Virus record (IMG/VR): IMGVR_UViG_3300046665_000397
Span: 1 to 39,690 of that record
DNA from: a virus
Strand: one strand, 5' to 3'
DNA: 39,690 bases
Below, in pieces: positions 26,336-35,942 of the stretch. Position numbers and translations under genes: made by a program. Each line of letters starts with the position of its first letter. The first letter of the stretch is position 1. The notes beneath the pieces were generated by a model. The model searched no databases and was not told the DNA's origin. It was given only the letters and a program-made list of their open reading frames with translations.

Positions 26336-26338
26336 AGC

Positions 26339-26457: not shown

Positions 26458-26460
26458 TTT

Positions 26461-26486
26461 TCGCATAATATACATACATTATAATG
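26461..26486 (+). promoter_or_regulatory. Phage promoter P4
   Basis: TCGC 26461-26464, AC 26472-26473, TATAAT 26480-26485, G next. It reads into the 79-residue gene at 26512. Confidence 0.8.
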
Positions 26487-26511
26487 AAAACATATTATAG
26501 GAGTGATAAAA

Positions 26512-26751
26512 ATGATAAAAAAACTTAAGAAATTTATGTTAAGAATGCAACTTAAAAGGTGTGGACTTAAAGAGATTAAATTAGGTAAAGAATATCAAGA
26601 TATCTGCGACGTAATTATGGATGGGATAATAAAAGGGGAGGATATAAGTAAAATTGAAAGATTACAATTGAAACGAAGATTTATTCATAGAGATAGATTA
26701 GATCTTATTGATAGAAGATTCGAATTGGAAAGGACAATTTTAAGGGCTTAA
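26512..26751 (+). CDS. Small basic protein of unknown function
   Basis: 79 residues from ATG 26512, eight bases after AGGAG. The GTG at 26503 overlaps that site. It is very basic at the start (MIKKLKKFMLRMQLKRCGLKE) and helical throughout, ending ERLQLKRRFIHRDRLDLIDRRFELERTILRA. It may bind nucleic acid. The last 20 bases form the 5' arm of the terminator. Confidence 0.65.
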   Translation: MIKKLKKFMLRMQLKRCGLKEIKLGKEYQDICDVIMDGIIKGEDISKIERLQLKRRFIHRDRLDLIDRRFELERTILRA

Positions 26752-26764
26752 TCGGTCCTTTTTA
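26729..26764 (+). terminator. Terminator overlapping the end of the 26512 gene
   Basis: AAGGAC 26730-26735 pairs with GTCCTT 26755-26760 across a 19-base loop. T-tract follows. Confidence 0.75.
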
Positions 26765-26770
26765 TTTACC

Positions 26771-26796
26771 TCGCAGAATTAACTCATCTTATAGTG
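26771..26796 (+). promoter_or_regulatory. Phage promoter P5
   Basis: TCGC 26771-26774, AC 26782-26783, TATAGT 26790-26795 (one of two copies with G in the fifth place). Confidence 0.75.
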
Positions 26797-26810
26797 AGAG
26801 GGGTGATATT

Positions 26811-26972
26811 ATGAAGAGTTTCATTATATTAACTATAGTGTTAGCAACAGTATTAATAGCTGTATCGTTATTATTAGATAACCTAATGGGTATATTTCTA
26901 GTATGTACAGTGGTATGTTTACTGTTAGACGCTAAGGAAAAGGAGAGACACAATAATAGACCTGACCGATAG
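26811..26972 (+). CDS. 53-residue two-TM membrane microprotein
   Basis: ATG 26811, ribosome site GAGGGGTGA. Two hydrophobic stretches, FIILTIVLATVLIAVSLLL (about 4-22) and MGIFLVCTVVCLLL (about 26-39), are joined by a short DN turn. The C-terminal tail is charged (DAKEKERHNNRPDR). Both ends are probably cytoplasmic. No family recognised. Confidence 0.65.
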   Translation: MKSFIILTIVLATVLIAVSLLLDNLMGIFLVCTVVCLLLDAKEKERHNNRPDR

Positions 26973-26975
26973 AGG

Positions 26976-26995
26976 GAAGCTTAGGCTTCTTTTTT
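26976..26995 (+). terminator. TTAG-loop terminator 2
   Basis: GAAGC 26976-26980, TTAG, GCTTC 26985-26989, T-tract. Confidence 0.88.
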
Positions 26996-26998
26996 AGC

Positions 26999-27024
26999 TC
27001 GCAAGAATAACAAACCATATAATG
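26999..27024 (+). promoter_or_regulatory. Phage promoter P6
   Basis: TCGC 26999-27002, AC 27010-27011, TATAAT 27018-27023, G next. Confidence 0.8.
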
Positions 27025-27056
27025 AAAACTAAAATATATTTTTAGGAGGACTTATT

Positions 27057-27203
27057 ATGAGTAGTATATTGATAGGAATAATGATTACTATAGGATGTAT
27101 ATCAGCAATGATTTATGCAATTTATAGAATTATAAAGGGATTTGTATTTATGATTAAAGGTACTGGCAGAAAAGTAAAAAGAAGATTTGTAAAGGGAGCT
27201 TAG
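27057..27203 (+). CDS. 48-residue membrane microprotein ending in the terminator
   Basis: ATG 27057, ribosome site TAGGAGGA. One hydrophobic segment (ILIGIMITIGCISAMIYAI, about 4-22) is followed by a basic C-terminal half (KGFVFMIKGTGRKVKRRFVKGA). The stop TAG 27201-27203 is part of the TTAG loop of the terminator. Function unknown. Confidence 0.65.
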   Translation: MSSILIGIMITIGCISAMIYAIYRIIKGFVFMIKGTGRKVKRRFVKGA

Positions 27204-27215
27204 GCTTTCTTTTTA
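27191..27215 (+). terminator. TTAG-loop terminator 3 (contains a stop codon)
   Basis: AAAGGGAGC 27191-27199, TTAG, GCTTTCTTT 27204-27212 with two wobbles. The loop TAG is the stop of the 27057 gene. Confidence 0.85.
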
Positions 27216-27218
27216 ACC

Positions 27219-27244
27219 TCGCCATAAATACATACTTTATAATG
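27219..27244 (+). promoter_or_regulatory. Phage promoter P7
   Basis: TCGC 27219-27222, AC 27230-27231, TATAAT 27238-27243, G next. Confidence 0.8.
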
Positions 27245-27271
27245 AAAGCATGATTTGAAAGGATAATTAAG

Positions 27272-27379
27272 ATGAAAAATTACAGTTTTGGACATATGGT
27301 GTTTGACTTTATTATGGTCATTCTAACAGGTGGTTTATGGCTTATTTGGGTTTTAATTAGATATTTAAGAACACATTAG
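27272..27379 (+). CDS. 35-residue membrane microprotein
   Basis: ATG 27272, eight bases after GAAAGGAT. The sequence MKNYSFGHMVFDFIMVILTG, GLWLIWVLIRYLRTH has one membrane helix (about 9-29) with Gly-Gly in the middle, two Trp, and a basic end. This looks like the small 'ILTGGLWLIW' membrane proteins seen in other phages and mobile elements. The function is unknown to me. Confidence 0.65.
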   Translation: MKNYSFGHMVFDFIMVILTGGLWLIWVLIRYLRTH

Positions 27380-27391
27380 AAAATAAAGGAG

Positions 27392-27412
27392 GAAAGCTTA
27401 GGCTTTCTTTTT
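27392..27412 (+). terminator. TTAG-loop terminator 4
   Basis: GAAAGC 27392-27397, TTAG, GCTTTC 27402-27407, T-tract. Confidence 0.9.
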
Positions 27413-27415
27413 AGT

Positions 27416-27441
27416 CCGCATAAATAACATACATTATAATG
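27416..27441 (+). promoter_or_regulatory. Phage promoter P8
   Basis: CCGC 27416-27419, AC 27427-27428, TATAAT 27435-27440, G next. Confidence 0.8.
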
Positions 27442-27470
27442 AAATCATATTTTGAAAGGGGATTTTAAAA

Positions 27471-27698
27471 ATGGAAAATGTTATAAAATTATATGAGGAA
27501 CATATAGAAAAGTTAATGAACCAACATGAGGATATAATGAATACGCTTAAACCGTTGAATGATGTAGAGGCATCTAGAGACGCAGAGTTAAGGGAATTCG
27601 TTAGCGATTTAATGGAATTAGCTACATATGTATCTAGCTGTATTACTGTAATAGAGTACAAGATAAAAATACTTAAAAGAATGATTGAAGAAGCTTAG
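27471..27698 (+). CDS. Helical protein of unknown function, ending in the terminator
   Basis: 75 residues, ribosome site GAAAGGGGAT. Two long amphipathic helices (ENVIKLYEEHIEKLMNQHEDIMNTL and RDAELREFVSDLMELATYVSSCITVIEYKIKILKRM) suggest a soluble helical hairpin or coiled coil. It ends MIEEA, where GAAGCTTAG is the terminator core. Confidence 0.7.
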   Translation: MENVIKLYEEHIEKLMNQHEDIMNTLKPLNDVEASRDAELREFVSDLMELATYVSSCITVIEYKIKILKRMIEEA

Positions 27699-27710
27699 GC
27701 TTCTTTTTTT
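27688..27710 (+). terminator. TTAG-loop terminator 5 (contains a stop codon)
   Basis: AGAAGC 27689-27694, TTAG 27695-27698, GCTTCT 27699-27704, long T-tract. The loop TAG stops the 27471 gene. Confidence 0.9.
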
Positions 27711-27714
27711 AACC

Positions 27715-27740
27715 TCGCAAGATTTACAAGCTATATAATG
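27715..27740 (+). promoter_or_regulatory. Phage promoter P9
   Basis: TCGC 27715-27718, AC 27726-27727, TATAAT 27734-27739, G next. Confidence 0.8.
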
Positions 27741-27763
27741 AAAGTAATTTCTTGGGGGATATT

Positions 27764-27871
27764 ATGAATAAGAAACAAAAACTTAGCGCTGCTATAGTTG
27801 CGATGAAAGTCGTTTACGTAATAGTAGAAGAAGGTTTGAAGATACTAAAAAATATTCAAATTGAGAAATAA
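27764..27871 (+). CDS. 35-residue amphipathic microprotein
   Basis: ATG 27764, ribosome site GGGGGAT. MNKKQKLSAAIVAMKVVYVI followed by VEEGLKILKNIQIEK. Predicted as a single amphipathic helix with a hydrophobic centre (AAIVAMKVVYVIV), perhaps lying on the membrane. No family recognised. Confidence 0.6.
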   Translation: MNKKQKLSAAIVAMKVVYVIVEEGLKILKNIQIEK

Positions 27872-27878
27872 TTAAATC

Positions 27879-27899
27879 GAAAGCTTAGGCTTTCTTTTT
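27879..27899 (+). terminator. TTAG-loop terminator 6
   Basis: GAAAGC 27879-27884, TTAG, GCTTTC 27889-27894, T-tract. Unlike the others it is not followed by a YCGC promoter. Confidence 0.9.
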
Positions 27900-27921
27900 A
27901 TTTCAAATAGGAGTGGTAGTA

Positions 27922-28128
27922 ATGAAAAAAACACACCCAAAAAGTAGGATAGTACAGTTCCATCATAGTTCAACACGTGCTAGTAAGCTATTAGATTGTG
28001 ATAATGGCAGTAGCGAGATAGTATTACAACTCGAAGAAGTACAACATTCGAAATTTGATTTTATTGCTGAGATAATTAACAAAAGTGACTATAATGTAGT
28101 AGAAAAAGTAGAGGAGGTGAGAATATGA
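27922..28128 (+). CDS. Small phage protein of unknown function
   Basis: 68 residues from ATG 27922, eight bases after AGGAG. The GTG at 27913 overlaps the site. Basic N-terminus (KKTHPKSRIVQFHHSSTRASKLL) then an acidic end. It overlaps the next gene by four bases. No promoter is seen between terminator 6 and this gene, so it needs readthrough or an unrecognised start. Confidence 0.6.
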   Translation: MKKTHPKSRIVQFHHSSTRASKLLDCDNGSSEIVLQLEEVQHSKFDFIAEIINKSDYNVVEKVEEVRI

Positions 28129-28304
28129 AGATATGCGGGGTATATACTATAAACAATACGGATGGGAGTACATTTTATAACACTGTACGTAATACCATAG
28201 ATAGTTTACAGGATGATGGTCAGGAAGTCGAAGTACAATATCAGGTAAACACTCTCTTAAATGGACAAATAGTACAGAGCGCTTTAATTTTAGGAAGAAA
28301 ATAA
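28125..28304 (+). CDS. Small protein, weakly Cse60-like
   Basis: 59 residues from ATG 28125, with GAGGAGGTGA upstream, overlapping the previous stop. The order strand-helix-strand (KICGVYTINN, FYNTVRNTIDSLQDDG, EVEVQYQVNTLLNGQIVQSALILGRK) resembles the tiny Cse60-type sporulation/phage fold. The match is by shape only. Confidence 0.6.
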   Translation: MKICGVYTINNTDGSTFYNTVRNTIDSLQDDGQEVEVQYQVNTLLNGQIVQSALILGRK

Positions 28305-28331
28305 TTTAATAGTTATAAAGGGGGTAAGGTT

Positions 28332-28433
28332 ATGCACTGGTTGGTAATTATAATTCTTGTATTTCTTAGCTTTCTATTCTATTCAATGGCAGTAGCAGCT
28401 GGTCGAGCAGATACAAAATCAGGTAATAAATAA
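28332..28433 (+). CDS. 33-residue membrane microprotein
   Basis: ATG 28332, ribosome site GGGGGTAAGG. MHWLVIIILVFLSFLFYSMA followed by VAAGRADTKSGNK: one membrane helix (3-22) and a short polar tail. It is nine bases ahead of the TTG/13 bases ahead of the ATG of the next gene, so part of an operon. Confidence 0.65.
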   Translation: MHWLVIIILVFLSFLFYSMAVAAGRADTKSGNK

Positions 28434-28446
28434 GGAGGAATTGGTT

Positions 28447-28851
28447 ATGGGAGAACATGTTAAAATACTAAAAGACAGTGGTGATACACGAGAATTTGGG
28501 ACCGGAGCAATTAGAGATATGGCGGAAGGAAAAGGACGTTTTGACTTATTGCCAGCGGCCGCATTACTTAGATTAGCTAAACATTATGAGGCTGGGGCTA
28601 AAAAATATGGAGATAGGAACTGGGAGAACGGTCAACCTATATCTGTATTAATTGATAGTGGGATGAGACACTTGTTCAAGTATTTAGACGGGTGGACGGA
28701 TGAGGACCATCTTTCGGCGGCTGCATGGAATATATTAGGGGCTATGTGGATGGAAGAAAAAAATCCAGCCATGCAAGATATAAAACCAAGGATTGATGCG
28801 GCAATTGGGTGGTTACAAAGACAAGAAGAGATGTGTAAAAGGGAGGATTAA
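28447..28851 (+). CDS. DUF5664 protein, dATP/dGTP diphosphohydrolase-type N-terminal domain
   Basis: 134 residues from ATG 28447. The TTG at 28441 is too near the AGGAGGAA site. The whole protein is the family domain: FGTGAIRDMAEGKGRFDLLP, LAKHYEAGAKKYGDRNWENG, LIDSGMRHLFKYLDGWTDEDH, LSAAAWNILGAMWMEE. The Glu/Asp/His residues in these blocks (EAGAKKYG, DEDHLSAAAWN) form the all-alpha pyrophosphatase-like metal site. Family members act on nucleotide pools in phages. The exact substrate here is not shown by the sequence. Confidence 0.85.
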   Translation: MGEHVKILKDSGDTREFGTGAIRDMAEGKGRFDLLPAAALLRLAKHYEAGAKKYGDRNWENGQPISVLIDSGMRHLFKYLDGWTDEDHLSAAAWNILGAMWMEEKNPAMQDIKPRIDAAIGWLQRQEEMCKRED

Positions 28852-28853
28852 TA

Positions 28854-29504
28854 ATGAAATTATTTTGTAGACACGAATGGGAAGAGGTTAGAGGGACTAG
28901 ACGTTTATATAACATAGGAACAAGTAAAGAGGCAAGATTTAAATGCTGCGAATGTGGAAAAGAGAAATGGTTTGATATATTTACAATGAAGAGGAATACG
29001 TACGTATTTAAAGAATATAATAAAGGTGCTATATCTGATGGTAGTCACACCTTCGATGAGCTATATCATCACAGAATGGTATTATTTTCAATAATATGTA
29101 GCAATTACAGTCCTTTAGCATGGAAATCTTGGAAACATCATGATGGAACTATGTATGAAAATTACTTCATAGTTGGAATTAATACACCTGAAGGTCAGTA
29201 TTCATATCACTATCATAAGGATAATTGGGATAAATTTAATGTTCCATATAAAGACTTTGCCCCCGAATGGGATGGACATAAACCAGAGGATATAGGGAGA
29301 TTATTAAGTTTACCAATTAACTTGGCTGACCTGATGGGCTGGTTACAGGGAGAAAAGTTTTTAATAGACGAACATTCGTCCACTATGACAGCCGATTTTG
29401 AGGATACACACAAATGGGAGTTAAGCAGGAATGTTTTTATAAACAAGGCTATGAAAAAGGTAGGTGAAATGACAGATGCCAAAGGACGTAAGTATAATGA
29501 ATAA
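28854..29504 (+). CDS. Zinc-ribbon / WDGH-domain phage protein
   Basis: 216 residues. The N-terminus has a ribbon with C5, H7 and C31, C34 (FCRHEWEE...CCECGKEKWF). Residues about 65-153 are a WDGH domain: TFDELYHHRMVLFSIICSNY, AWKSWKHHDGTMYENYFIVG, NTPEGQYSYHYHKDNWDKF, APEWDGHKPEDIGRLLSL. The last 60 residues are unassigned. WDGH domains occur as single proteins or fusions in phages and have no known activity. Three bases separate it from DUF5664, and its end overlaps the kinase start. Confidence 0.8.
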   Translation: MKLFCRHEWEEVRGTRRLYNIGTSKEARFKCCECGKEKWFDIFTMKRNTYVFKEYNKGAISDGSHTFDELYHHRMVLFSIICSNYSPLAWKSWKHHDGTMYENYFIVGINTPEGQYSYHYHKDNWDKFNVPYKDFAPEWDGHKPEDIGRLLSLPINLADLMGWLQGEKFLIDEHSSTMTADFEDTHKWELSRNVFINKAMKKVGEMTDAKGRKYNE

Positions 29505-30024
29505 GAAAATAGTTCTAATTAATGGTTCGGGGGGAGTTGGTAAAGACACTTTTATAGAGTTTTGTAGTCAATACGTACGTACACTTAATATATCAACTGT
29601 AGATAAGGTTAAAGAAGCTGCCAAGTTATTGGGTTGGAATGGTGGAAAAACTGAGAAAGATAGGTTATTTCTATCAAACCTTAAACTTACAGCGGTAGAT
29701 TATAACGACCATTCGTACAATTATATAAAAAAATCAATTGAAGATTTTATGAACCCAACAAGACATTCGCATTTACTATTTATACATGTTAGGGAACCTG
29801 GCGAAATAGAAAGGTTTGTAAAAGATTTTGGATGTTTAACTGTATTGGTTAGGAACAATAATGTTGCAGGTATATCTTCAAATATGGCCGATTCAAATGT
29901 TGAGAATTATAAGTACAATTATATAATTAATAATCATTATAGTTTAGACATATTAGATGAATCCGCCAGGGGATTTGTATTTGATATATTTAGTAATCGC
30001 TCGCGCAAAAAACTTTTCCTATAA
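29497..30024 (+). CDS. Deoxynucleoside monophosphate kinase-like P-loop protein
   Basis: 175 residues from ATG 29497, after AAAGGA and overlapping the previous gene. The 29476 start has no site. Walker A GSGGVGKDT occupies residues 10-18. HLLFIHVREPGEIERFV and TVLVRNNN are like the LID/NMP-binding parts of phage dNMP kinases, and the protein ends in a helical region. It would phosphorylate dNMPs for phage DNA synthesis. Its last eight residues are encoded by promoter P10, and its stop TAA lies in the TATAAT box. Confidence 0.75.
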   Translation: MNKKIVLINGSGGVGKDTFIEFCSQYVRTLNISTVDKVKEAAKLLGWNGGKTEKDRLFLSNLKLTAVDYNDHSYNYIKKSIEDFMNPTRHSHLLFIHVREPGEIERFVKDFGCLTVLVRNNNVAGISSNMADSNVENYKYNYIINNHYSLDILDESARGFVFDIFSNRSRKKLFL

Positions 30025-30026
30025 TG
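30001..30026 (+). promoter_or_regulatory. Phage promoter P10 (inside the end of the kinase gene)
   Basis: TCGC 30001-30004, AC 30012-30013, TATAAT 30020-30025, G next. Only copy with no terminator just upstream. Confidence 0.8.
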
Positions 30027-30041
30027 AAAGGGGTTGTTAAA

Positions 30042-30194
30042 ATGAATAAGATTGAAAAAATAGCAAGAGATGTATTGTTGAAACCATCAGGGAAACATAT
30101 TTTAGATGTACCAGGGGTTATGGAATTAAGCGATGATGAAATGCGACAATTATCAGTGGAAATTAAGAAACTCGAAAACAAAGAGGAAGCTTAG
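30042..30194 (+). CDS. 50-residue acidic protein ending in the terminator
   Basis: ATG 30042, ribosome site GAAAGGGG. MNKIEKIARDVLLKPSGKHI then LDVPGVMELSDDEMRQLSVE and a charged helix ending ENKEEA. TAG of the TTAG loop is the stop. Probably soluble, with no family known to me. Confidence 0.65.
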   Translation: MNKIEKIARDVLLKPSGKHILDVPGVMELSDDEMRQLSVEIKKLENKEEA

Positions 30195-30205
30195 GCTTTC
30201 TTTTT
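30185..30205 (+). terminator. TTAG-loop terminator 7 (contains a stop codon)
   Basis: GGAAGC 30185-30190, TTAG, GCTTTC 30195-30200 (one wobble), T-tract. Stops the 30042 gene. Confidence 0.88.
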
Positions 30206-30208
30206 AGT

Positions 30209-30234
30209 CCGCTAAAATAACACACCTTATAATG
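30209..30234 (+). promoter_or_regulatory. Phage promoter P11
   Basis: CCGC 30209-30212, AC 30220-30221, TATAAT 30228-30233, G next. Confidence 0.8.
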
Positions 30235-30259
30235 AAAAATAAAATTTTTGGAGGTTAAT

Positions 30260-30577
30260 ATGAAAAACGTAAAGGAATTCTGTAAAAAACACAAGAAAGA
30301 ACTTATCATTGGAGGAAGTCTTATAGGGGCAACAGTAATTGTTGTGCTGACTAAAGGTAAACTTAAAATGGTTAAAAAAGAGTTAATTGATGTTGCAGGA
30401 AAAAACGTAATTAGTTGGAAAGAAACAGGAAATTTTGTTGGATTAGAAAAAGTAAAAGAATTTATAGAATCAAATGCGAATAGCAATTCTCTATATGCAG
30501 TAGTAAAAGAAGGAGACGTTGGAAACGATGTATACTCTCTAATAGTATTGAATGGTGGGAATGATATAGTATTATGA
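30260..30577 (+). CDS. Single-TM membrane protein of unknown function
   Basis: 105 residues from ATG 30260, seven bases after GGAGG. The TTG at 30248 overlaps the site. A basic N-terminus (KNVKEFCKKHKKE) leads into a membrane helix (LIIGGSLIGATVIVVLT, about 14-31) and a soluble 70-residue C-terminal part with helix and strands, probably on the outside by the positive-inside rule. The same plan, a short basic start, Gly-rich helix and charged tail, recurs at 34945 and 35203. Confidence 0.7.
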   Translation: MKNVKEFCKKHKKELIIGGSLIGATVIVVLTKGKLKMVKKELIDVAGKNVISWKETGNFVGLEKVKEFIESNANSNSLYAVVKEGDVGNDVYSLIVLNGGNDIVL

Positions 30578-30581
30578 TCTT

Positions 30582-30604
30582 AAAGAGCTTTTGCTCTTTT
30601 TATT
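30582..30604 (+). terminator. Terminator after the 30260 gene
   Basis: AAAGAGC 30582-30588, loop TTTT, GCTCTTT 30593-30599, T-tract. Confidence 0.9.
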
Positions 30605-30630
30605 TCGCGTAAAAAACATCTCTTATAATG
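30605..30630 (+). promoter_or_regulatory. Phage promoter P12
   Basis: TCGC 30605-30608, AC 30616-30617, TATAAT 30624-30629, G next. Confidence 0.8.
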
Positions 30631-30655
30631 AAAAATAATTCTAGGAGGTTTTATT

Positions 30656-30889
30656 ATGGACGATGATAACAAGATTATTAAACTAGCTGCTGCTGGATTT
30701 ATTGGATTGGTTATGGTCCCTATAGTAATTAGGGTCACAACTGGTTTGGCAAACTCAGCAGTATGCGGAATAAGTAATGCTGTTGAAAGACGAAGATATA
30801 ACAAAAGAATTAAAAAGGGGTTAAAAGATGGAAGCATAGTCAAAATCGATGGAGTATACTATGAAGTATGCGAAATGGAGGAGGATTAA
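30656..30889 (+). CDS. Single-TM membrane protein of unknown function
   Basis: 77 residues, ribosome site TAGGAGG. A hydrophobic region (IIKLAAAGFIGLVMVPIVIRVTTGLANSAVCGI, about 7-39) is long enough for one tilted or two short helices. The tail after it is first basic (ERRRYNKRIKKGLKDGS) and then acidic. Terminator arm overlaps the last codons. Confidence 0.7.
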   Translation: MDDDNKIIKLAAAGFIGLVMVPIVIRVTTGLANSAVCGISNAVERRRYNKRIKKGLKDGSIVKIDGVYYEVCEMEED

Positions 30890-30902
30890 CTTTCCTCTTT
30901 TT
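30881..30902 (+). terminator. Terminator overlapping the end of the 30656 gene
   Basis: GAGGA 30881-30885 pairs with TCCTC 30893-30897, T-tract follows. Confidence 0.75.
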
Positions 30903-30904
30903 AT

Positions 30905-30930
30905 TCGCGTAAAAAACACACCCTATAATG
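30905..30930 (+). promoter_or_regulatory. Phage promoter P13 (ncRNA 2)
   Basis: TCGC 30905-30908, AC 30916-30917, TATAAT 30924-30929, G 30930. No start codon with a ribosome site is in the 115 bases that follow before the next promoter. Confidence 0.8.
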
Positions 30931-31046
30931 AGGAGAAAAAGTAGTTGAATATCAGTAAACTAGTAGAGATAGTAAGAGATCTAGCTTAAAGGATAAAGCG
31001 CCGATATAACCATCGGAGATATCGAGATCGTACTCCTTTTCTTTTT
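30930..31046 (+). ncRNA. ncRNA 2: branched structured RNA
   Basis: A non-coding unit between P13 and P14. Closing stem GAGGAG 30930-30935 with CTCCTT 31033-31038, directly before the T-rich end. Inside: hairpin TAGTT 30942-30946 / AACTA 30958-30962, and a three-way element closed by GATCT 30978-30982 / AGATC 31025-31029 that holds hairpins GCTT 30984-30987 / AAGC 30996-30999 and CCGAT 31001-31005 / ATCGG 31012-31016. A competing pair is CGATAT 31002-31007 / ATATCG 31019-31024. No homology to a known RNA class was recognised. Confidence 0.6.
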
Positions 31047-31047
31047 G

Positions 31048-31073
31048 TCGCATTTATTACATATCCTATAATG
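31048..31073 (+). promoter_or_regulatory. Phage promoter P14
   Basis: TCGC 31048-31051, AC 31059-31060, TATAAT 31067-31072, G next. Confidence 0.8.
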
Positions 31074-31103
31074 AAAATATAAAATATAAGGAGATGTTAT
31101 ATT

Positions 31104-31334
31104 ATGATAAGATGGATAAAGAACGATTTCATGTGTGTGAGAGAGGCTCTAGGTTGTCTAATAAATAGGAGGATTCCATTTGGAATAGCAATATTGTATT
31201 ACATAATCGTGGGGGTTCTAGCTGCACCACTTGGAATTGCATGTTGGATATATCTTATAGTATGGCGTAAGGTCACACTTAGAAAATTAGATAAAACGTT
31301 TGGTAAATATACCAGAGATGAAGAGGAAGCTTAG
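31104..31334 (+). CDS. Membrane protein of unknown function, ending in the terminator
   Basis: 76 residues, ribosome site AAGGAGAT. A basic N-terminal region is followed by IPFGIAILYYIIVGVLAAPLGIACWIYLIVW (about 24-54), probably two membrane helices in a hairpin with a Pro turn. The C-terminal tail is charged and ends DEEEA, with the stop from the terminator loop. Confidence 0.7.
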   Translation: MIRWIKNDFMCVREALGCLINRRIPFGIAILYYIIVGVLAAPLGIACWIYLIVWRKVTLRKLDKTFGKYTRDEEEA

Positions 31335-31345
31335 GCTTTCTTTTT
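31325..31345 (+). terminator. TTAG-loop terminator 8 (contains a stop codon)
   Basis: GGAAGC 31325-31330, TTAG, GCTTTC 31335-31340 (one wobble), T-tract. Not followed by a YCGC promoter. Confidence 0.88.
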
Positions 31346-31367
31346 AACCTTTGAAAGGGGAACCGCT

Positions 31368-31517
31368 ATGGATAAATCTTATGTAACTAAAGTTTGTCAT
31401 GTATGTAGGGGGGCTAAGAAGGTATCTAATTGGTACCACGATCCATTCCTGACTCCATGCGTCTGTTTAAAATGTGGCGGAAAAGGATACCTAATAATCA
31501 ACAAAACAATTAACTAA
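31368..31517 (+). CDS. 49-residue DnaJ-type zinc-finger microprotein
   Basis: ATG 31368, ribosome site GAAAGGGGAA. It carries CHVCRG (C10, C13) and, after a loop with a further C31, CLKCGGKGYL (C33, C36). Two Cys-x-x-Cys-x-Gly units are the zinc-binding half of the DnaJ cysteine-rich domain. There is no J domain. It may help fold or bind a partner. No promoter lies between it and terminator 8. Confidence 0.7.
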   Translation: MDKSYVTKVCHVCRGAKKVSNWYHDPFLTPCVCLKCGGKGYLIINKTIN

Positions 31518-31529
31518 TTATATTTTACC

Positions 31530-31555
31530 TCGCGAAAATTACACAGTATATAGTG
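31530..31555 (+). promoter_or_regulatory. Phage promoter P15 (ncRNA 3)
   Basis: TCGC 31530-31533, AC 31541-31542, TATAGT 31549-31554, G 31555. Confidence 0.75.
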
Positions 31556-31645
31556 AAAGGAAGTGGTGTAACACGAATGTAGAATCTTAAGTGATTCCGC
31601 CGCTGTAGGAGTTCGTTGCTCCCTGCAGCCCTTTCATTTTTATTT
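31555..31645 (+). ncRNA. ncRNA 3: cloverleaf-like structured RNA
   Basis: A non-coding unit between P15 and P16. Closing stem GAAAGG 31555-31560 / CCTTTC 31630-31635, then ATTTTTATTT as the terminator tail. Three arms inside: GTG-GTGTAA-CAC 31563-31574; GAATC-TTAAGT-GATTC 31582-31597; and a long arm CTGTA-GGAG 31603-31611 / CTCC-c-TGCAG 31619-31628 with seven-base loop TTCGTTG. The order of arms recalls a tRNA, but loop sequences do not fit one. No open frame with a ribosome site is present. Confidence 0.65.
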
Positions 31646-31648
31646 ACC

Positions 31649-31674
31649 TCGCGAGGAATACAACTCCTATAATA
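31649..31674 (+). promoter_or_regulatory. Phage promoter P16
   Basis: TCGC 31649-31652, AC 31660-31661, TATAAT 31668-31673. The only copy followed by A instead of G. Confidence 0.78.
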
Positions 31675-31704
31675 GAAAATTATATTCTTAGGAGGAATTA
31701 TATT

Positions 31705-31884
31705 ATGAAACAAATATGTAAAATATTATTAATAATGTTTATAGGGTTTATTCTTGGATGTGGATTGGCTGAGGCAAATACTCAGTATCAACGAGCAAAA
31801 GAGAAGAAACAAGATAGCGTAGCAATTAGTAAATTTCTAAAAGGTTTAAGTAATGATTACGGATTTGAATATACCGAAAATTAG
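31705..31884 (+). CDS. Small membrane protein, possible lipoprotein
   Basis: 59 residues, ribosome site TAGGAGGAA. The N-terminus MKQICKILLIMFIGFILGCG has a basic start, a hydrophobic core and ILGC with C19 in lipobox position, so it may be lipidated at Cys19 and displayed outside. Otherwise it is a one-TM anchor. The mature part is polar (LAEANTQYQRAKEKKQDSV and on). Small phage lipoproteins often block superinfection, but nothing here proves it. Stop TAG lies in the terminator stem. Confidence 0.65.
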   Translation: MKQICKILLIMFIGFILGCGLAEANTQYQRAKEKKQDSVAISKFLKGLSNDYGFEYTEN

Positions 31885-31905
31885 AGAGCTTCGGCTTTCT
31901 TTTTA
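31884..31905 (+). terminator. UUCG-loop terminator
   Basis: GAGAGC 31884-31889, loop TTCG, GCTTTC 31894-31899, T-tract. Same stem as the TTAG family but with a stable UUCG tetraloop. Confidence 0.88.
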
Positions 31906-31906
31906 T

Positions 31907-31930
31907 ATTTTAAAAAATGAGAGGAGAAAA
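31907..31930 (+). repeat. 24-bp direct repeat carrying a ribosome site, copy 1
   Basis: Identical to 32121-32144. The right half is TGAGAGGAGAAAA, the ribosome site of the gene that follows. Confidence 0.85.
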
Positions 31931-31935
31931 TCACT

Positions 31936-32118
31936 ATGGGTAAAGGTGATAGGTATATCCAAAGGAGGCAAGAGTTAATTCAGAGAAGTGAATTAATGAA
32001 TACTTTGAAGAATCGTCCTATTGACAGAAATTGGATTTCATTTACGGACACTAGAGTGGCTAAAGACGGACAACACAAACTTGCGAGCGATATAATGAAT
32101 AAGAAAAAGCATAAATAA
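31936..32118 (+). CDS. Small basic protein of unknown function
   Basis: 60 residues from ATG 31936, seven bases after GAGGAGAA. It is hydrophilic and Arg/Lys-rich (MGKGDRYIQRRQELIQRSEL, then NTLKNRPIDRNWISFTDTRV). No promoter of the array is seen between it and the preceding terminator. Confidence 0.6.
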   Translation: MGKGDRYIQRRQELIQRSELMNTLKNRPIDRNWISFTDTRVAKDGQHKLASDIMNKKKHK

Positions 32119-32120
32119 TA

Positions 32121-32144
32121 ATTTTAAAAAATGAGAGGAGAAAA
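32121..32144 (+). repeat. 24-bp direct repeat carrying a ribosome site, copy 2
   Basis: Same 24 bases as 31907-31930, here in front of a 12-codon open frame. Confidence 0.85.
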
Positions 32145-32148
32145 CACC

Positions 32149-32187
32149 ATGAATGAAAAAACTGAAAGCATAAAGGAGATGATATAA
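32149..32187 (+). CDS. 12-codon leader peptide or remnant
   Basis: ATG 32149 with the repeat's strong ribosome site encodes MNEKTESIKEMI and stops in a TAATG overlap with the next gene, whose own site (AAAGGAGAT) lies in its last codons. It is either a leader peptide coupling translation or the remains of a gene replaced next to the repeat. Confidence 0.4.
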   Translation: MNEKTESIKEMI

Positions 32188-32330
32188 TGCCATCGGAAAA
32201 ATATATTAGGTTAATATATCAATACTTAAAACAAGGAAAGTGGAAACAGAAGACGGAATATGTTAAACCAGAGGATTTAAAGAAATACGAAGACTTTAAA
32301 ATTATATCCCAGAAAGAAGTGTGGAGGTAA
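32187..32330 (+). CDS. 47-residue protein of unknown function
   Basis: ATG 32187, site AAAGGAGAT. MPSEKYIRLIYQYLKQGKWK followed by QKTEYVKPEDLKKYEDFKII: a basic helical start and a mixed C-terminus. Three bases separate its stop from the next start. Confidence 0.6.
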   Translation: MPSEKYIRLIYQYLKQGKWKQKTEYVKPEDLKKYEDFKIISQKEVWR

Positions 32331-32332
32331 TC

Positions 32333-32524
32333 ATGGAAAGAGAAATAGAACAATTAATTAGAGATAAGGCCAGAATATTAGCACAGCATTTTCCAACAAC
32401 CGCTAACTACGAGAGTAGATGTAGTTTATGGAAATGTGGATTACAGAAGGGGTTAGTGTCAGAGGAGCTATATAGTATGGCTGAAAAATACTATGGTAGT
32501 CTTTGGACATATGTCGGAGATTAA
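32333..32524 (+). CDS. 63-residue helical protein of unknown function
   Basis: ATG 32333 with site GGAGGTAATC. The 32321 start lies in that site. EREIEQLIRDKARILAQHFP and LWKCGLQKGLVSEELYSMAEKYYGSLWTYVGD look like a compact helical domain. It ends immediately before promoter P17. Confidence 0.65.
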   Translation: MEREIEQLIRDKARILAQHFPTTANYESRCSLWKCGLQKGLVSEELYSMAEKYYGSLWTYVGD

Positions 32525-32526
32525 CC

Positions 32527-32552
32527 TCGCAGAATTTACAAGGTATATAATG
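32527..32552 (+). promoter_or_regulatory. Phage promoter P17 (ncRNA 4)
   Basis: TCGC 32527-32530, AC 32538-32539, TATAAT 32546-32551, G 32552. Confidence 0.8.
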
Positions 32553-32617
32553 AAGAGATGGAAGCGTTTGAATGCACCAAGTAGAAGGAGGTTCTACACA
32601 TCTCTTTATATTTTTAA
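32552..32617 (+). ncRNA. ncRNA 4: three-way junction RNA presenting GGAGG in a loop
   Basis: Closing stem GAAGAGATG 32552-32560 pairs along its full nine bases with CATCTCTTT 32599-32607 (one wobble), followed by ATATTTTT. Two inner hairpins: GCGT-TTGA-ATGC 32564-32575 and the perfect GTAGAA-GGAGG-TTCTAC 32581-32597. The loop GGAGG is a Shine-Dalgarno sequence held out of any gene start. The element is either an independent 60-base RNA or the leader of the zinc-ribbon gene at 32638. Confidence 0.68.
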
Positions 32618-32637
32618 AATTGGAAGGAGATAATATT

Positions 32638-32784
32638 ATGATATTTGTATTGGTTTGTTCATGTGGATGTAGACATTTCGATTACAATGAAGAGGGTAAA
32701 TTCGTATGCACGGAATGCGGAGAGGAATACAATTATTGGGAAGCTGGCGGTCATCTGCTAGGAGTGGAGGATGACAATGAATAA
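32638..32784 (+). CDS. 48-residue zinc-ribbon protein
   Basis: ATG 32638 with GGAAGGAGAT seven bases upstream. An open frame from 32572 runs through ncRNA 4 and is not used. C8, C10 and C12 region (LVCSCGCRHFDY) and CTECGEEY (C24, C27) make a small zinc ribbon, with an acidic end. Likely binds nucleic acid or protein. Confidence 0.7.
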   Translation: MIFVLVCSCGCRHFDYNEEGKFVCTECGEEYNYWEAGGHLLGVEDDNE

Positions 32785-33001
32785 AAATAAAGTTAAAAAA
32801 TATGTAAAGATAGGTTTAATTATTACAATTGCTGTTGGATTGGCGACGTTAATAAATGGAGTTGTATTTAGCGAATCTACTCCATCTCTACATCTAGATG
32901 AGGATACTGATAACATAGACATGTATGATGATAAAGAATTTTATTACCTTACTCATAATGATGACGGAACAATGAATGATTATGGTAAGAGTCTTATATA
33001 A
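32777..33001 (+). CDS. Single-TM protein with acidic C-terminus
   Basis: 74 residues from ATG 32777, six bases after GGAGG. The ATG at 32771 touches that site. MNKNKVKKYVKIG leads into a membrane helix (LIITIAVGLATLINGVVF, about 14-31) and an acidic external tail (LHLDEDTDNIDMYDDKEFYY). It overlaps the previous gene by eight bases. Confidence 0.7.
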   Translation: MNKNKVKKYVKIGLIITIAVGLATLINGVVFSESTPSLHLDEDTDNIDMYDDKEFYYLTHNDDGTMNDYGKSLI

Positions 33002-33032
33002 CTAAATTATATTTTGAAAGGAGAAAATCACT

Positions 33033-33167
33033 ATGAAATTTTTATTGTTCGCTATAAATTTATACTTTAGACATATGAGGAAACCTCTTAAAGATATGAG
33101 TAGCGGGAAATTGACATCTGCAGTAATAACCACAGATGAATATATTATAACAATTAATCAATTATAA
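33033..33167 (+). CDS. 44-residue protein of unknown function
   Basis: ATG 33033 with site GAAAGGAGAA. MKFLLFAINLYFRHMRKPLK has a short hydrophobic, aromatic start, then DMSSGKLTSAVITTDEYIITINQL, possibly a beta hairpin. No family. Confidence 0.6.
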   Translation: MKFLLFAINLYFRHMRKPLKDMSSGKLTSAVITTDEYIITINQL

Positions 33168-33196
33168 AATAAGAATTTTGAAAGGAGACTAAATAA

Positions 33197-34003
33197 ATGA
33201 ATATAAAAGGAATAACCGAAATAACTAAAACTGTTGGAGGATTTGCGACTAAGCATTCTCCAACCATATTAACCGGCATAGGCGTAGCAGGAGTTATAAG
33301 TACAATTATATCAGCTCATAATGATACAATAAAAGCATTAGCTATACTAGATGATGAATTATTAGAGCGAAATCCAACATCTAAAGTTCAGCCGACTATA
33401 GACAAGATAACTGATGAGTTTACAAAGAAGGAAATAGTTAAATTAACCTGGAAATGTTATGTACCCACAGCGATTCTAGCAACAATAACTATGGGATGTA
33501 TTGTAGGTGGGAATTCAATAAACCTGCGTAGGAATGCGGCTCTTGCTGGAGCATATTCTCTAGCTGAGACAGCTTTAAAAGAATATAAGAATAAAGTTGT
33601 TGAGACCATGGGTAAAAATAAAGACAAAGAGATTAAAGAAGAAATAATTAAAGATAAACTTAGGGAAAACCCTTATTATAAGACAGAGGTTATACGTACT
33701 GGTAGGGGCGATACCCTATGCTATGATTCATATTCTGGGAGATATTTCTGGAGTGATATGAATGATATTAAGGCTGCTATAAATAATTTGAACATGAGAA
33801 TGAGAAATGAAAACTGGGCTACACTAAATGACTTCTATTCAGAAATAGATATTGAAGGTATAAAGGCTGGGGATTTATTGGGCTGGCACGTTAATTATGG
33901 AACCGTTGAATTGGATTATGACACTCATCTATCAGATGACGGACGACCATGTCTAGTTGTAGACTTTGATACTGAACCTAAATATTGGAAAATGGATTTT
34001 TAA
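33197..34003 (+). CDS. DUF6353-like phage membrane protein
   Basis: 268 residues, site GAAAGGAGA. The N-terminal part has a membrane helix (SPTILTGIGVAGVISTIISA, about 21-40), a helical loop, and a second hydrophobic segment (YVPTAILATITMGCIVGG, about 88-105). The C-terminal half is soluble: YKTEVIRTGRGDTLCYDSYS, GRYFWSDMNDIKAAINNLN, DLLGWHVNYGTVELDYDTHL. This order matches the DUF6353 family I know from gut Clostridia phages. Function is unknown. A second, related gene begins at 39326. Confidence 0.75.
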   Translation: MNIKGITEITKTVGGFATKHSPTILTGIGVAGVISTIISAHNDTIKALAILDDELLERNPTSKVQPTIDKITDEFTKKEIVKLTWKCYVPTAILATITMGCIVGGNSINLRRNAALAGAYSLAETALKEYKNKVVETMGKNKDKEIKEEIIKDKLRENPYYKTEVIRTGRGDTLCYDSYSGRYFWSDMNDIKAAINNLNMRMRNENWATLNDFYSEIDIEGIKAGDLLGWHVNYGTVELDYDTHLSDDGRPCLVVDFDTEPKYWKMDF

Positions 34004-34016
34004 GGGGGATTAAATA

Positions 34017-34142
34017 ATGGAAAAACAGAAGGTATATAATGTAGGTCATAAAATGGGTACAATGCTATGTTGGATATTTGTGGCCTCAGTTGCGTCTATT
34101 ACAATAGCTTTAACTGCGAAATTTATAATGTGGTTGTTTTAG
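34017..34142 (+). CDS. 41-residue membrane microprotein
   Basis: ATG 34017, site AAGGGGGAT. MEKQKVYNVGHKMGTMLCWI then FVASVASITIALTAKFIMWLF: one membrane helix with polar N-terminus. It is in the same operon as the DUF6353 gene, and its TAG overlaps the next ribosome site. Confidence 0.65.
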   Translation: MEKQKVYNVGHKMGTMLCWIFVASVASITIALTAKFIMWLF

Positions 34143-34151
34143 GAGGCTGCC

Positions 34152-34484
34152 ATGAGAGATAGGGAAAGGAAACAAAAAGAACAAAAAAGCATTATAATCA
34201 GAACTAAAAAAGGTAATACAGTAAATTGTTATCATTTCACCACTTATGGGAGAGATAGTCATGATCTCCCTAGTGGGGCTAACAGATATGCAACATTCGA
34301 CAAGGCCGCTGAGCGTATAGAAGTCAATTGGAATGTTGGAGGAGATGTATTCATAAGACTATACGAACGTCATCCTAATGGATTTGATGTTGTTGACACT
34401 GTAGTGTTTGATAAGAAATTTGTTACTGCAATAGAGATAGAGACAGATTTTAAGAATTTGCGATGGGAGGATTTAAATGGTTAA
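34152..34484 (+). CDS. Hypothetical phage protein
   Basis: 110 residues, site TAGGAGG. Basic start (RDRERKQKEQK) and a beta-rich body (IIIRTKKGNTVNCYHFTTYG, GGDVFIRLYERHPNGFDVVD, TVVFDKKFVTAIEIETDF). It overlaps the MazG-like gene by eight bases. Confidence 0.65.
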   Translation: MRDRERKQKEQKSIIIRTKKGNTVNCYHFTTYGRDSHDLPSGANRYATFDKAAERIEVNWNVGGDVFIRLYERHPNGFDVVDTVVFDKKFVTAIEIETDFKNLRWEDLNG

Positions 34485-34785
34485 CTTTGATGCAGAGCAA
34501 CAGGAAGTTATGTCCAAAGAGGTGAAACAACTACAAAGAAGGTTGGTGGATGAAAAAGACATAGGTTATCTATCTGTCTGTCTAGTTGAAGAGATGAGTG
34601 AGTTAATAAAAGTTTTAGCCAAAAAGATGAGAAAGTCAGATAAATTTAAACAAGAAGATTTAGAGGAAGAATTAGGTCATGTCTTACTTATGTGCGAATC
34701 GATAAAAACTAAATTTCATGTAAGTGATGCTGCAATATTATATCATAAACATGATGCTCTTACGAGGTGTTTTAAAAATGGTTAG
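34477..34785 (+). CDS. MazG-like nucleotide pyrophosphohydrolase with altered metal site
   Basis: 102 residues, site GGGAGG before ATG 34477. All-alpha MazG-type fold: LVEEMSELIKVLAKK gives the EExxE motif (E38, E39, E42), then DLEEELGHVLLMCESIK gives the second half of the site. In the family this second motif reads ExxD. Here H68 stands where Asp is expected. The protein may bind metal differently or be a non-catalytic nucleotide binder. Together with DUF5664 and the kinase it forms a nucleotide-pool set. Confidence 0.75.
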   Translation: MVNFDAEQQEVMSKEVKQLQRRLVDEKDIGYLSVCLVEEMSELIKVLAKKMRKSDKFKQEDLEEELGHVLLMCESIKTKFHVSDAAILYHKHDALTRCFKNG

Positions 34786-34891
34786 TATAATAATTGGAGC
34801 GATAATAATATGGGTTGTAGCGTTGATATTAGTAGCAATAATATTTAGTACGCTTATGTTTATACAGCTTATTAAGTTAATGTGGTTCTAA
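34778..34891 (+). CDS. 37-residue membrane microprotein
   Basis: ATG 34778, overlapping the previous stop, with site ACGAGGTG. MVSIIIGAIIIWVVALILVA then IIFSTLMFIQLIKLMWF is almost entirely hydrophobic. One or two helices. It ends two bases before P18. Confidence 0.6.
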   Translation: MVSIIIGAIIIWVVALILVAIIFSTLMFIQLIKLMWF

Positions 34892-34892
34892 A

Positions 34893-34918
34893 TCGCAGAA
34901 AAAACATAGCTTATAATG
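34893..34918 (+). promoter_or_regulatory. Phage promoter P18
   Basis: TCGC 34893-34896, AC 34904-34905, TATAAT 34912-34917, G next. No terminator separates it from the gene upstream. Confidence 0.8.
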
Positions 34919-34944
34919 AAATATAATTCTTGGGAGGAATCATT

Positions 34945-35106
34945 ATGAGAGAAAAGGTAAACCAATTTTATCAAAAGAATAAGGAGGTTATTAAGACCGC
35001 AGGCAAGTCAGCAGTAGTGACGACAGCTGTTATGGGTTTAATATCAACTGCTATTCTAGCAAAATTAGTTAGCGCCTTGGATAAAGCAATGGACGACAAG
35101 AAGTAA
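34945..35106 (+). CDS. 53-residue membrane microprotein
   Basis: ATG 34945, site TGGGAGGAA. Charged start (REKVNQFYQKNKEVIKTAGK), membrane helix (SAVVTTAVMGLISTAILAKL, about 22-41), charged end. The plan is like the 30260 protein. Confidence 0.65.
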   Translation: MREKVNQFYQKNKEVIKTAGKSAVVTTAVMGLISTAILAKLVSALDKAMDDKK

Positions 35107-35111
35107 TAGAG

Positions 35112-35133
35112 AGAAAGCCTAAGCTTTCTTTTT
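35112..35133 (+). terminator. Inverted copy of the TTAG-loop terminator
   Basis: AGAAAGC 35112-35118, loop CTAA, GCTTTCT 35123-35129, T-tract. CTAA is the reverse complement of TTAG, so the module lies in the opposite orientation but still works because the stem is symmetrical. Confidence 0.88.
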
Positions 35134-35140
35134 ATTTACC

Positions 35141-35166
35141 TCGCAGGATTTACAAACCCTATAATG
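35141..35166 (+). promoter_or_regulatory. Phage promoter P19
   Basis: TCGC 35141-35144, AC 35152-35153, TATAAT 35160-35165, G next. Confidence 0.8.
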
Positions 35167-35202
35167 AAAACTAAAATAATATTTTTGAGAGGAGATAATA
35201 AA

Positions 35203-35436
35203 ATGGAAAACGAAAGAGTTGAAGAGATTAAACAAGAGGTTATAGTTGAGGAAAAGAAGAAAATGGGTAAAGTAAAGAAATACTTATTAATCGGAGGAGG
35301 CGCATTAGCAGCACTGTTAGCAGTGGGGTTAGTAGCCAAATCGAGAAATAAGGGAGATATTGAAAACCAGTTTCAGCTACCACAAGTAGATCATGAGTTT
35401 GAACCAACTTTAGAAGAGAGTTCTATTGTTGAGTAA
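35203..35436 (+). CDS. Single-TM protein with acidic C-terminus
   Basis: 77 residues from ATG 35203, site GAGAGGAGAT. The frame is open from an ATG inside the promoter (35164), which has no site. Acidic/basic N-terminal helix, then a membrane segment (YLLIGGGALAALLAVGLVA, about 27-45), then an acidic tail (DHEFEPTLEESSIVE). Confidence 0.7.
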   Translation: MENERVEEIKQEVIVEEKKKMGKVKKYLLIGGGALAALLAVGLVAKSRNKGDIENQFQLPQVDHEFEPTLEESSIVE

Positions 35437-35448
35437 TCAAGAGATATT

Positions 35449-35490
35449 AAAGGGGGATGGGTGTTATGGAAACATAGCATCCTTTCTTTT
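35449..35490 (+). terminator. Terminator with GAAA tetraloop
   Basis: GGATG 35455-35459 pairs with CATCC 35478-35482, enclosing TATG-GAAA-CATA 35465-35476. T/C-rich tract TTTCTTTTGTTTT follows. Confidence 0.75.
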
Positions 35491-35512
35491 GTTTTAAGGA
35501 GGATTTATATTG

Positions 35513-35680
35513 ATGGGCATATTGCTATATTTATTTGGAAGTAGGTTGAGTATATTAGATGCTGTAATAATCAGTACTATTTTGTTACTATTCATGAACA
35601 AGAAATATAAGTACGCCATATTACTGTTTATAATTGGTGGTTTAGTTACTTCTGGTTTTGAAATTTTACTAGGTATATAA
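35513..35680 (+). CDS. 55-residue two-TM microprotein
   Basis: ATG 35513, ten bases after GGAGG. TTG 35510 at seven bases is an equal alternative that adds one residue. Two hydrophobic segments, about 1-27 (MGILLYLFGSRLSI, LDAVIISTILLLF) and 36-54 (AILLFIIGGLVTSGFEILLG), are joined by NKKYKY. No YCGC promoter is in front of it. Confidence 0.6.
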   Translation: MGILLYLFGSRLSILDAVIISTILLLFMNKKYKYAILLFIIGGLVTSGFEILLGI

Positions 35681-35705
35681 TCATATATTCAAGGGGGAAT
35701 ATATT

Positions 35706-35876
35706 ATGGATAATCATGAGAAGGCATTAAGAACTTACGAGGCTTTACAGAAAAGGAAAAAAAAGAAAGAATTACAGAGGAAATTAGATTTAAATGGTCT
35801 TGGATGGAATGGAGCTAATAAGTATTTTATTAGAAACCAGAGGAACTATTATAATGGAAAACATACTTGCAATTAA
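35706..35876 (+). CDS. 56-residue basic protein of unknown function
   Basis: ATG 35706, site AAGGGGGAA. Lys/Arg-rich helix (ALQKRKKKKELQRKLDLNGL) then GWNGANKYFIRNQRNYYNGK. It may bind nucleic acid. It ends four bases before promoter P20. Confidence 0.6.
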   Translation: MDNHEKALRTYEALQKRKKKKELQRKLDLNGLGWNGANKYFIRNQRNYYNGKHTCN

Positions 35877-35880
35877 AAAT

Positions 35881-35906
35881 TCGCAAATTTTACATAGCTT
35901 ATAATG
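35881..35906 (+). promoter_or_regulatory. Phage promoter P20 (last of the array)
   Basis: TCGC 35881-35884, AC 35892-35893, TATAAT 35900-35905, G next. Confidence 0.8.
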
Positions 35907-35942
35907 AAAAGATTAAATAATTTTTGAAAGGAGAAATTCACT

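What the first reader, a model, noticed from the sequence alone, without database searches (positions are those of the whole stretch)
32552..32617. Tiny RNA that shows a Shine-Dalgarno sequence (GGAGG) in a hairpin loop
The perfect hairpin GTAGAA-GGAGG-TTCTAC displays GGAGG, complementary to the 3' end of 16S rRNA, inside a nine-pair closing stem. It could hold 30S subunits, sponge a C-rich small RNA, or act as a leader that controls the 32638 zinc-ribbon gene.
Basis: partly seen in the sequence, partly recalled or inferred. Interest (0 to 1): 0.7.

Follow-up and report, generated by a model that had tools for sequence, protein, structure and literature searches.

The report
Phage mini-RNA closed by its terminator
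A gut-type bacterial virus carries a ~56-base RNA gene with its own promoter; it is one of a large, apparently undescribed collection of tiny tRNA-like and other folded RNAs in this virus group, and the 'ribosome-binding' word in its loop is probably incidental.

Summary
The hairpin is real. GUAGAA-GGAGG-UUCUAC (32581-32597) is one arm of a three-way junction whose nine-pair closing stem is GAAGAGAUG/CAUCUCUUU (32552-32560/32599-32607), followed by a T-rich tail (z -3.4). It starts directly after TATAAT (32546-32551) of a promoter family found 1099 times on the gene strand and twice on the other in this phage group (ReqiPepy6-like; relatives in Clostridia genomes, Rhodococcus, Gordonia). About 8% of these promoters are followed by the same design: the RNA's 5' end pairs with a 3' strand that runs into a U-tract (50 seen, 3.4 expected at the strict cut). 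The enclosed domain is a tRNA, a tRNA-like fold or another small fold; the window RNA is of the short, non-tRNA, three-way-junction kind. Across the class the closing stem is kept and the loops differ; a GGAGG hairpin loop was seen only here, and 4 of 40 shuffled windows give one. No relative of the RNA itself was found, so loop conservation was not tested directly. Best reading: a self-contained phage small RNA whose closing stem plus U-tract is a leaky terminator, placed as leader of the zinc-ribbon/DUF6353 genes. 'Tiny RNA' and 'leader' are supported by position; 'SD display' is not. Its trans function is unknown.

The parts
32523..32554 (+). Phage promoter-family element: CGC 32528-32530, ACA 32538-32540, TATAAT 32546-32551, then G
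   Evidence: PWM from relatives; 1099 + strand hits vs 2 on - strand in L005-L228 and window; this site scores 33.8 bits
32552..32560 (+). 5' strand of closing stem P1 (GAAGAGAUG)
   Evidence: fold z -3.39; closed-RNA score 9.5, class excess 50 vs 3.4 expected
32564..32575 (+). P2 arm GCGU-UUGA-AUGC
   Evidence: MFE and centroid
32581..32597 (+). P3 arm GUAGAA-GGAGG-UUCUAC; 17 nt, the size of a tRNA T-arm, but without a T-loop sequence
   Evidence: MFE and centroid; tRNA not matched by Rfam up to E=10
32599..32607 (+). 3' strand of closing stem P1 (CAUCUCUUU); overlaps the start of the U-tract
32605..32615 (+). T-rich tail TTTATATTTTT, presumed end of the small RNA / leaky intrinsic terminator
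   Evidence: sequence; same TTTTATTTTT-type tail after the closed RNAs of relatives
32625..32632 (+). Shine-Dalgarno region AAGGAGAT of the next gene; can pair with P1 3' strand 32600-32607 if the first four RNA bases are missing
   Evidence: alternative MFE of 32556-32640
32638..32784 (+). Downstream gene, 48-aa zinc-ribbon-like protein (weak Zn_ribbon_RRN7 match, below cut-off)
33197..34003 (+). DUF6353 / phrog_2152 membrane protein of the same gene run, which has no other promoter of the family (next one 2.3 kb downstream)

Best explanation
The element is a self-contained small-RNA gene of a ReqiPepy6-like siphophage. A phage-type promoter starts an RNA at, or within two bases after, the G that follows TATAAT (inferred). 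The RNA folds into a three-way junction whose closing stem brings the 5' end to the 3' end (predicted). The stem runs into a U-tract and acts as a leaky intrinsic terminator (inferred), so most transcripts end near 32607-32617 as an end-protected RNA of about 56-64 nt. Read-through supplies the mRNA of 32638 and following genes including DUF6353 (inferred from the lack of another promoter). It belongs to a class, defined here, of promoter-closed small RNAs in these phages; the others enclose tRNAs, tRNA-like folds or other small folds, and this one is probably a decayed or remodelled tRNA-type insert or a tRNA-like mimic. The GGAGG loop is probably incidental. What the RNA does in trans is not shown.
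For: Promoter family: 1099 hits on the gene strand vs 2 on the other; reversed control pattern 0 hits in 34 records. Closing stem beginning at the promoter and running into a T-rich tail: 50 of 816 promoters at score >=9 vs mean 3.4, max 6, when the 5' 14 nt are swapped among promoters; this RNA scores 9.5. In a -60..+40 scan 44 of 62 such stems start 0-2 nt after TATAAT. Whole fold z -3.39. Interiors of non-tRNA closed RNAs <=100 nt fold better than shuffles (mean z -1.4, n=18; this one -1.44). Like-built short RNAs: L084:9807, L044:8234, L216:7330, L056:8813; same P1 GAGAUGG...ACAUCUCUUU in L060:8966 (with a real T-arm), and GAGAUGG...ACAUCUCUUU in L229/L241. Homologous closed RNAs with compensatory changes in other phages: L062/L075. 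A gene follows directly without a promoter in 46 of 59.
Against: No transcript data. No ortholog of this RNA, so no covariation test for it alone. P1 is AU-rich and the U-tract is interrupted (TTTATATTTTT), so termination may be weak. A sigma70-type start 6-8 nt after TATAAT would remove most of the 5' strand of P1. The tRNA origin rests on shared P1 letters and arm size only; Rfam tRNA does not match. At the strict cut about 7% of closed RNAs are expected to be false.
Confidence: 0.6

Rival explanations
1. Cis-regulatory leader: the RNA is mainly a switch for the 32638/DUF6353 genes. With P1 formed the downstream SD is free; when the 5' strand is missing or occupied, the P1 3' strand AUCUCUUU pairs with the SD AAGGAGAU and blocks translation.
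For: Two exclusive folds: -18.1 kcal/mol with P1 from 32552, and an anti-SD hairpin (-15.5) when the RNA starts at 32556. The gene follows directly.
Against: Pyrimidine-rich 3' strands and purine-rich SDs are complementary across the class by composition. The enclosed domains differ between phages and so do the downstream genes. The last promoter before DUF6353 carries a closed RNA in only 10 of 91 loci, about the background of 8.6%.
Confidence: 0.2
2. Pseudo-tRNA debris: a tRNA transcription unit whose inside has decayed; only promoter, closing stem and U-tract are kept because they insulate neighbouring genes.
For: Many closed RNAs in relatives are tRNAs or near-tRNAs with the same promoter and ends; L060:8966 shares the acceptor letters and keeps a T-arm.
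Against: Interiors of the non-tRNA members still fold better than shuffles, and some non-tRNA members are conserved between phages with compensatory changes.
Confidence: 0.15
3. Shine-Dalgarno display: the GGAGG loop binds 16S rRNA 3' ends or a C-rich small RNA, holding 30S subunits or acting as a sponge.
For: GGAGG is unpaired in the predicted fold.
Against: Loop not shared by any other closed RNA examined. GGAGG in a loop is expected in about one of ten shuffled windows. A five-base loop cannot form five pairs freely (general RNA geometry, from knowledge). Only six CCTCC words occur on the + strand of the window. Nearly every mRNA of this phage already shows such words.
Confidence: 0.03
4. 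Not an RNA gene: part of a protein. ORF 32550-32633 (27 aa, Arg-rich) or the N-terminal extension 32572-32784 of the zinc-ribbon protein is what is selected.
For: Both frames are open.
Against: The 32550 ATG lies inside the promoter's TATAATG; the 32572 ATG is inside P2, with a far better SD before 32638. No relatives of the 32638 protein in 224 loci, so an extended form has no support.
Confidence: 0.02

Closest known systems
Phage-encoded tRNAs (RF00005) as defence-evasion or supply RNAs
   Same: In these phages tRNAs sit in the same promoter / closing stem / U-tract frame; the window RNA shares acceptor-like P1 letters with tRNA-like L060:8966. Evasion by phage tRNAs is described in PMC10264068 and PMC11555353 (titles and abstracts).
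   Different: The window RNA has no anticodon arm, no D-arm, no T-loop sequence and no tRNA covariance-model match.
43-base TATAAT-containing intergenic motif of Gordonia cluster DJ phages (phage Conley, after Vardy; PMC10868162)
   Same: Very likely the same promoter family: it is abundant in the related Gordonia phage Avazak.
   Different: The passages of that announcement read here mention a motif and intergenic gaps; RNAs closed by pairing with the promoter-proximal end are not mentioned in them.
Intrinsic (rho-independent) terminators
   Same: Stem directly followed by a U-rich tail.
   Different: The 'loop' is a folded domain of 38 nt (up to more than 100 in relatives), and the 5' strand is the first transcribed bases of the unit.

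Membership tests
Promoter-closed small RNAs of ReqiPepy6-like phages (class defined here) | Phage-family promoter directly upstream | tested here: met
   33.8-bit PWM hit, TATAAT 32546-32551
Promoter-closed small RNAs of ReqiPepy6-like phages (class defined here) | Stem starting 0-2 nt after TATAAT pairs with a 3' strand that runs into a T-rich tail | tested here: met
   8 Watson-Crick pairs, score 9.5; class excess 50 vs 3.4
Promoter-closed small RNAs of ReqiPepy6-like phages (class defined here) | Structured interior | tested here: met
   interior z -1.44 alone (20 of 200 shuffles as good, so modest), whole RNA z -3.39
Promoter-closed small RNAs of ReqiPepy6-like phages (class defined here) | Transcribed as a discrete RNA | not testable with these tools
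   needs RNA sequencing of infected cells
tRNA (RF00005) | Match to the covariance model / ARAGORN | tested here: not met
   no tRNA match at 32540-32640 up to E=10; ARAGORN none in the window
tRNA (RF00005) | T-arm with TTCRANT loop | tested here: not met
   17-nt arm, but loop is GGAGG (6-bp reading) or AGGAGGT (5-bp reading)
SD-displaying / ribosome-binding or sponge RNA | Unpaired SD-like loop conserved among relatives | tested here: inconclusive
   no other closed RNA has it, but no ortholog of this RNA itself was found to test
cis-acting translational/transcriptional leader | Fixed position before a gene without its own promoter, with alternative folds touching the SD | tested here: inconclusive
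   position met; alternative fold possible; no association with a particular downstream gene

The most novel reading that the evidence does not exclude
A widespread phage group infecting Clostridia and Actinobacteria runs a fast-changing arsenal of promoter-closed mini-RNAs (tRNAs, permuted or truncated tRNA-likes, three-way junctions, repeated hairpins), expressed from a promoter whose RNA starts directly at TATAAT. They act in trans as decoys or inhibitors of host RNA-targeting enzymes; the window's 56-nt junction is one of the smallest.
Probability: 0.25. Interest if true: 0.8.

Novelty: new variant of a known kind. Interest (0 to 1): 0.5.

Why it matters
If confirmed, a large phage group would have a standard cassette for small RNAs in which the RNA's own ends form the terminator stem, so that tRNAs and other small folds are built the same way. 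That gives a simple handle (promoter motif plus closing stem) for finding dozens of uncatalogued phage RNAs, some conserved between very distant phages, and raises the testable question whether they are tRNA mimics or decoys against tRNA-targeting immunity.

Tried and rejected
Exact 17-mer of the hairpin in IMG/VR: one hit, inside a coding gene of an unrelated phage (L001), judged chance. Exact promoter-core 18-mer in IMG/VR: one hit (L004) in an unrelated context. P1 pattern with this phage's promoter: one relative in P1 only (L229). P1 pattern without promoter: ten hits, none with the promoter. DNA similarity in named phages: none. Rfam: no family for this element and only tRNAs in seven relatives. 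Single-protein search with DUF6353: none; the alignment search worked. Orthologs of the neighbour proteins 32333, 32638, 32771: none in 224 loci. Association of closed RNAs with DUF6353: not above background. Phage sigma factor region 2: none in 25 relatives (control worked); T7-type RNA polymerase: none, but the control also stayed silent, so this is no evidence of absence. Literature: no description of these RNAs found, but subscription journals are mostly not held.

Full report
WHAT IS THERE. The hairpin GUAGAA-GGAGG-UUCUAC is at 32581-32597. The minimum-energy fold is a three-way junction: closing stem P1 GAAGAGAUG/CAUCUCUUU (32552-32560/32599-32607), arm P2 GCGU-UUGA-AUGC (32564-32575) and arm P3 with the GGAGG loop. 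MFE is -17.0 kcal/mol, z -3.39, 1 of 200 shuffles as good. A T-rich tail TTTATATTTTT follows. GGAGG in a hairpin loop alone is not rare here: 4 of 40 dinucleotide-shuffled windows have at least one.

WHERE IT LIES. The window is a fragment of a siphophage-type genome whose terminase is about 78% identical to those of Rhodococcus phage ReqiPoco6 and Streptomyces phages. A DUF6353 protein lies 0.6 kb downstream; its relatives are in many IMG/VR contigs and in Lachnospiraceae/Clostridia genomes. Directly upstream of the element is TCGCAGAATTTACAAGGTATATAATG, one of about twenty copies in the window. A matrix built from relatives (TCGCR-A/T-rich-ACA-N5-TATAATGRR) hits 1099 times on the gene strand and twice on the other in the loci L005-L228 plus the window; the pattern read backwards never hits in 34 further records. 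A 43-base TATAAT motif reported for Gordonia cluster DJ phages (PMC10868162) is very likely the same element. It is best read as the phage's promoter; the median distance to the start codon is 33 nt.

THE CLASS. In about 8% of cases the promoter is followed not by a short leader but by a folded RNA. The first transcribed bases pair with a strand that runs into a TTTTATTTTT-like tail. At score 9 or more, 50 of 816 distinct promoters show this, against a mean of 3.4 (maximum 6) when the first 14 bases are exchanged between promoters. Scanning stem starts from -60 to +40, 44 of 62 lie 0-2 bases after TATAAT. What is enclosed varies: tRNAs recognised by ARAGORN, tRNA-like folds with a T-loop, and folds with no tRNA trait. 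The non-tRNA interiors of up to 100 nt still fold better than shuffles (mean z -1.4, n=18). Several are shared between phages: the window's own RNA at 31555 with L016 and L040, the L062/L075 pair with compensatory changes, and a ~120-nt RNA shared by two IMG/VR phages and, in its core, by Avazak and ReqiPepy6.

THE WINDOW RNA IN THE CLASS. It scores 9.5 on the closing-stem test and is among the shortest. Short junctions of the same layout, with other loops, are L084:9807, L044:8234, L216:7330 and L056:8813. Its P1 letters GAGAUGG...ACAUCUCUUU recur in L060:8966, which keeps a real T-arm, and in L229/L241. P3 has the 17-nt size of a T-arm. This makes descent from a tRNA unit plausible, but Rfam's tRNA model does not match, so it is not filed as a tRNA. 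No ortholog of this RNA or of the neighbouring genes was found.

HOW IT MOST LIKELY WORKS. Shown by computation: promoter family, closing-stem excess, fold, T-tail, and a gene following without a promoter (46 of 59 such RNAs; here the next promoter is 2.3 kb on). Inferred: RNA start at the G after TATAAT or within two bases; leaky termination in the U-tract; end-protected RNA of about 56-64 nt; read-through to 32638 and DUF6353. Unknown: what the RNA does in trans. A mimic or decoy of tRNA is the most attractive guess because tRNAs share the same frame and phage tRNAs are known to counter tRNA-targeting immunity (PMC10264068, PMC11555353; abstracts), but nothing here tests it.

RIVALS. A cis switch is possible: if the RNA began at 32556 or later, AUCUCUUU of P1 would instead pair with the SD AAGGAGAU of gene 32638; this complementarity is expected from composition across the class and the RNAs are not tied to one downstream gene. 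Decay of a tRNA unit is possible but does not explain structured, sometimes conserved non-tRNA interiors. SD display is disfavoured: the GGAGG loop is unique to this RNA in the class, no start codon stands behind it, and the five-base loop is sterically poor for five pairs (knowledge). Peptide coding is disfavoured: the 27-aa frame starts inside TATAATG.

A LOOSE END. A stem that starts 0-2 bases after TATAAT means the RNA contains those bases, whereas sigma-70 promoters start 6-8 bases further on (knowledge). No sigma-70 region-2 protein (control worked) and no T7-type polymerase (control silent) was found in 25 relatives. Either the promoter is read in an unusual way, or the motif is not a normal -10 box, or the closed RNAs are made from transcripts that start further upstream.

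VERDICT. Observation confirmed; 'tiny RNA' and 'leader' supported by position; 'SD display' not supported. The larger finding is the class of promoter-closed small RNAs.

Noticed in passing
window 26136-35912 (about 20 sites) and L005-L228: Strictly oriented promoter family TCGCR-N6-7-ACA-N5-TATAATGRR before most small genes, shared by phages of Clostridia, Rhodococcus and Gordonia; 1099 vs 2 hits by strand.
   Followed up: yes
promoters with closed RNAs, all loci: Closing stems start 0-2 nt after TATAAT, implying an RNA start about 6 nt earlier than a sigma-70 -10 box gives; no sigma factor found in relatives.
   Followed up: partly
window 31555-31635; L016:9683; L040:8423: Second closed RNA in the window, conserved in two other phages, no Rfam family.
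   Followed up: partly
window 26364-26445; L242 7865-7956 (-): tRNA-like RNA with an extra hairpin CUGGGUUACCAG between acceptor and D-arm, conserved in another phage.
   Followed up: partly
window 30930-31040: Third candidate closed RNA (109 nt, six-pair P1 with a T-rich tail).
   Followed up: no
L241 3390-3514 (-), L247:5917-6042, L008:5891-6010, L007:9502-9625: ~120-nt RNA with core GAGACRCnAAUGnGURGGWGAAAnnCCYACCC shared between IMG/VR phages and actinobacterial phages.
   Followed up: partly
L008:14480-14570, L247:6496-6590, L241 (closed RNA after the promoter at 7115 of the - strand): Closed or promoter-led RNAs made of two or three hairpins repeating the same inner motif, e.g. CCCCGUUAUACGGAG three times in Avazak.
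   Followed up: no
L010:351-416: Closed RNA with a T-arm-like hairpin (CGGUUCAAUUCCG) as its first arm instead of the last: a permuted tRNA-like layout.
   Followed up: no
L001 8150-8166 (-): A coding gene of an unrelated phage shares about 22 contiguous bases with the hairpin; judged coincidence.
   Followed up: partly
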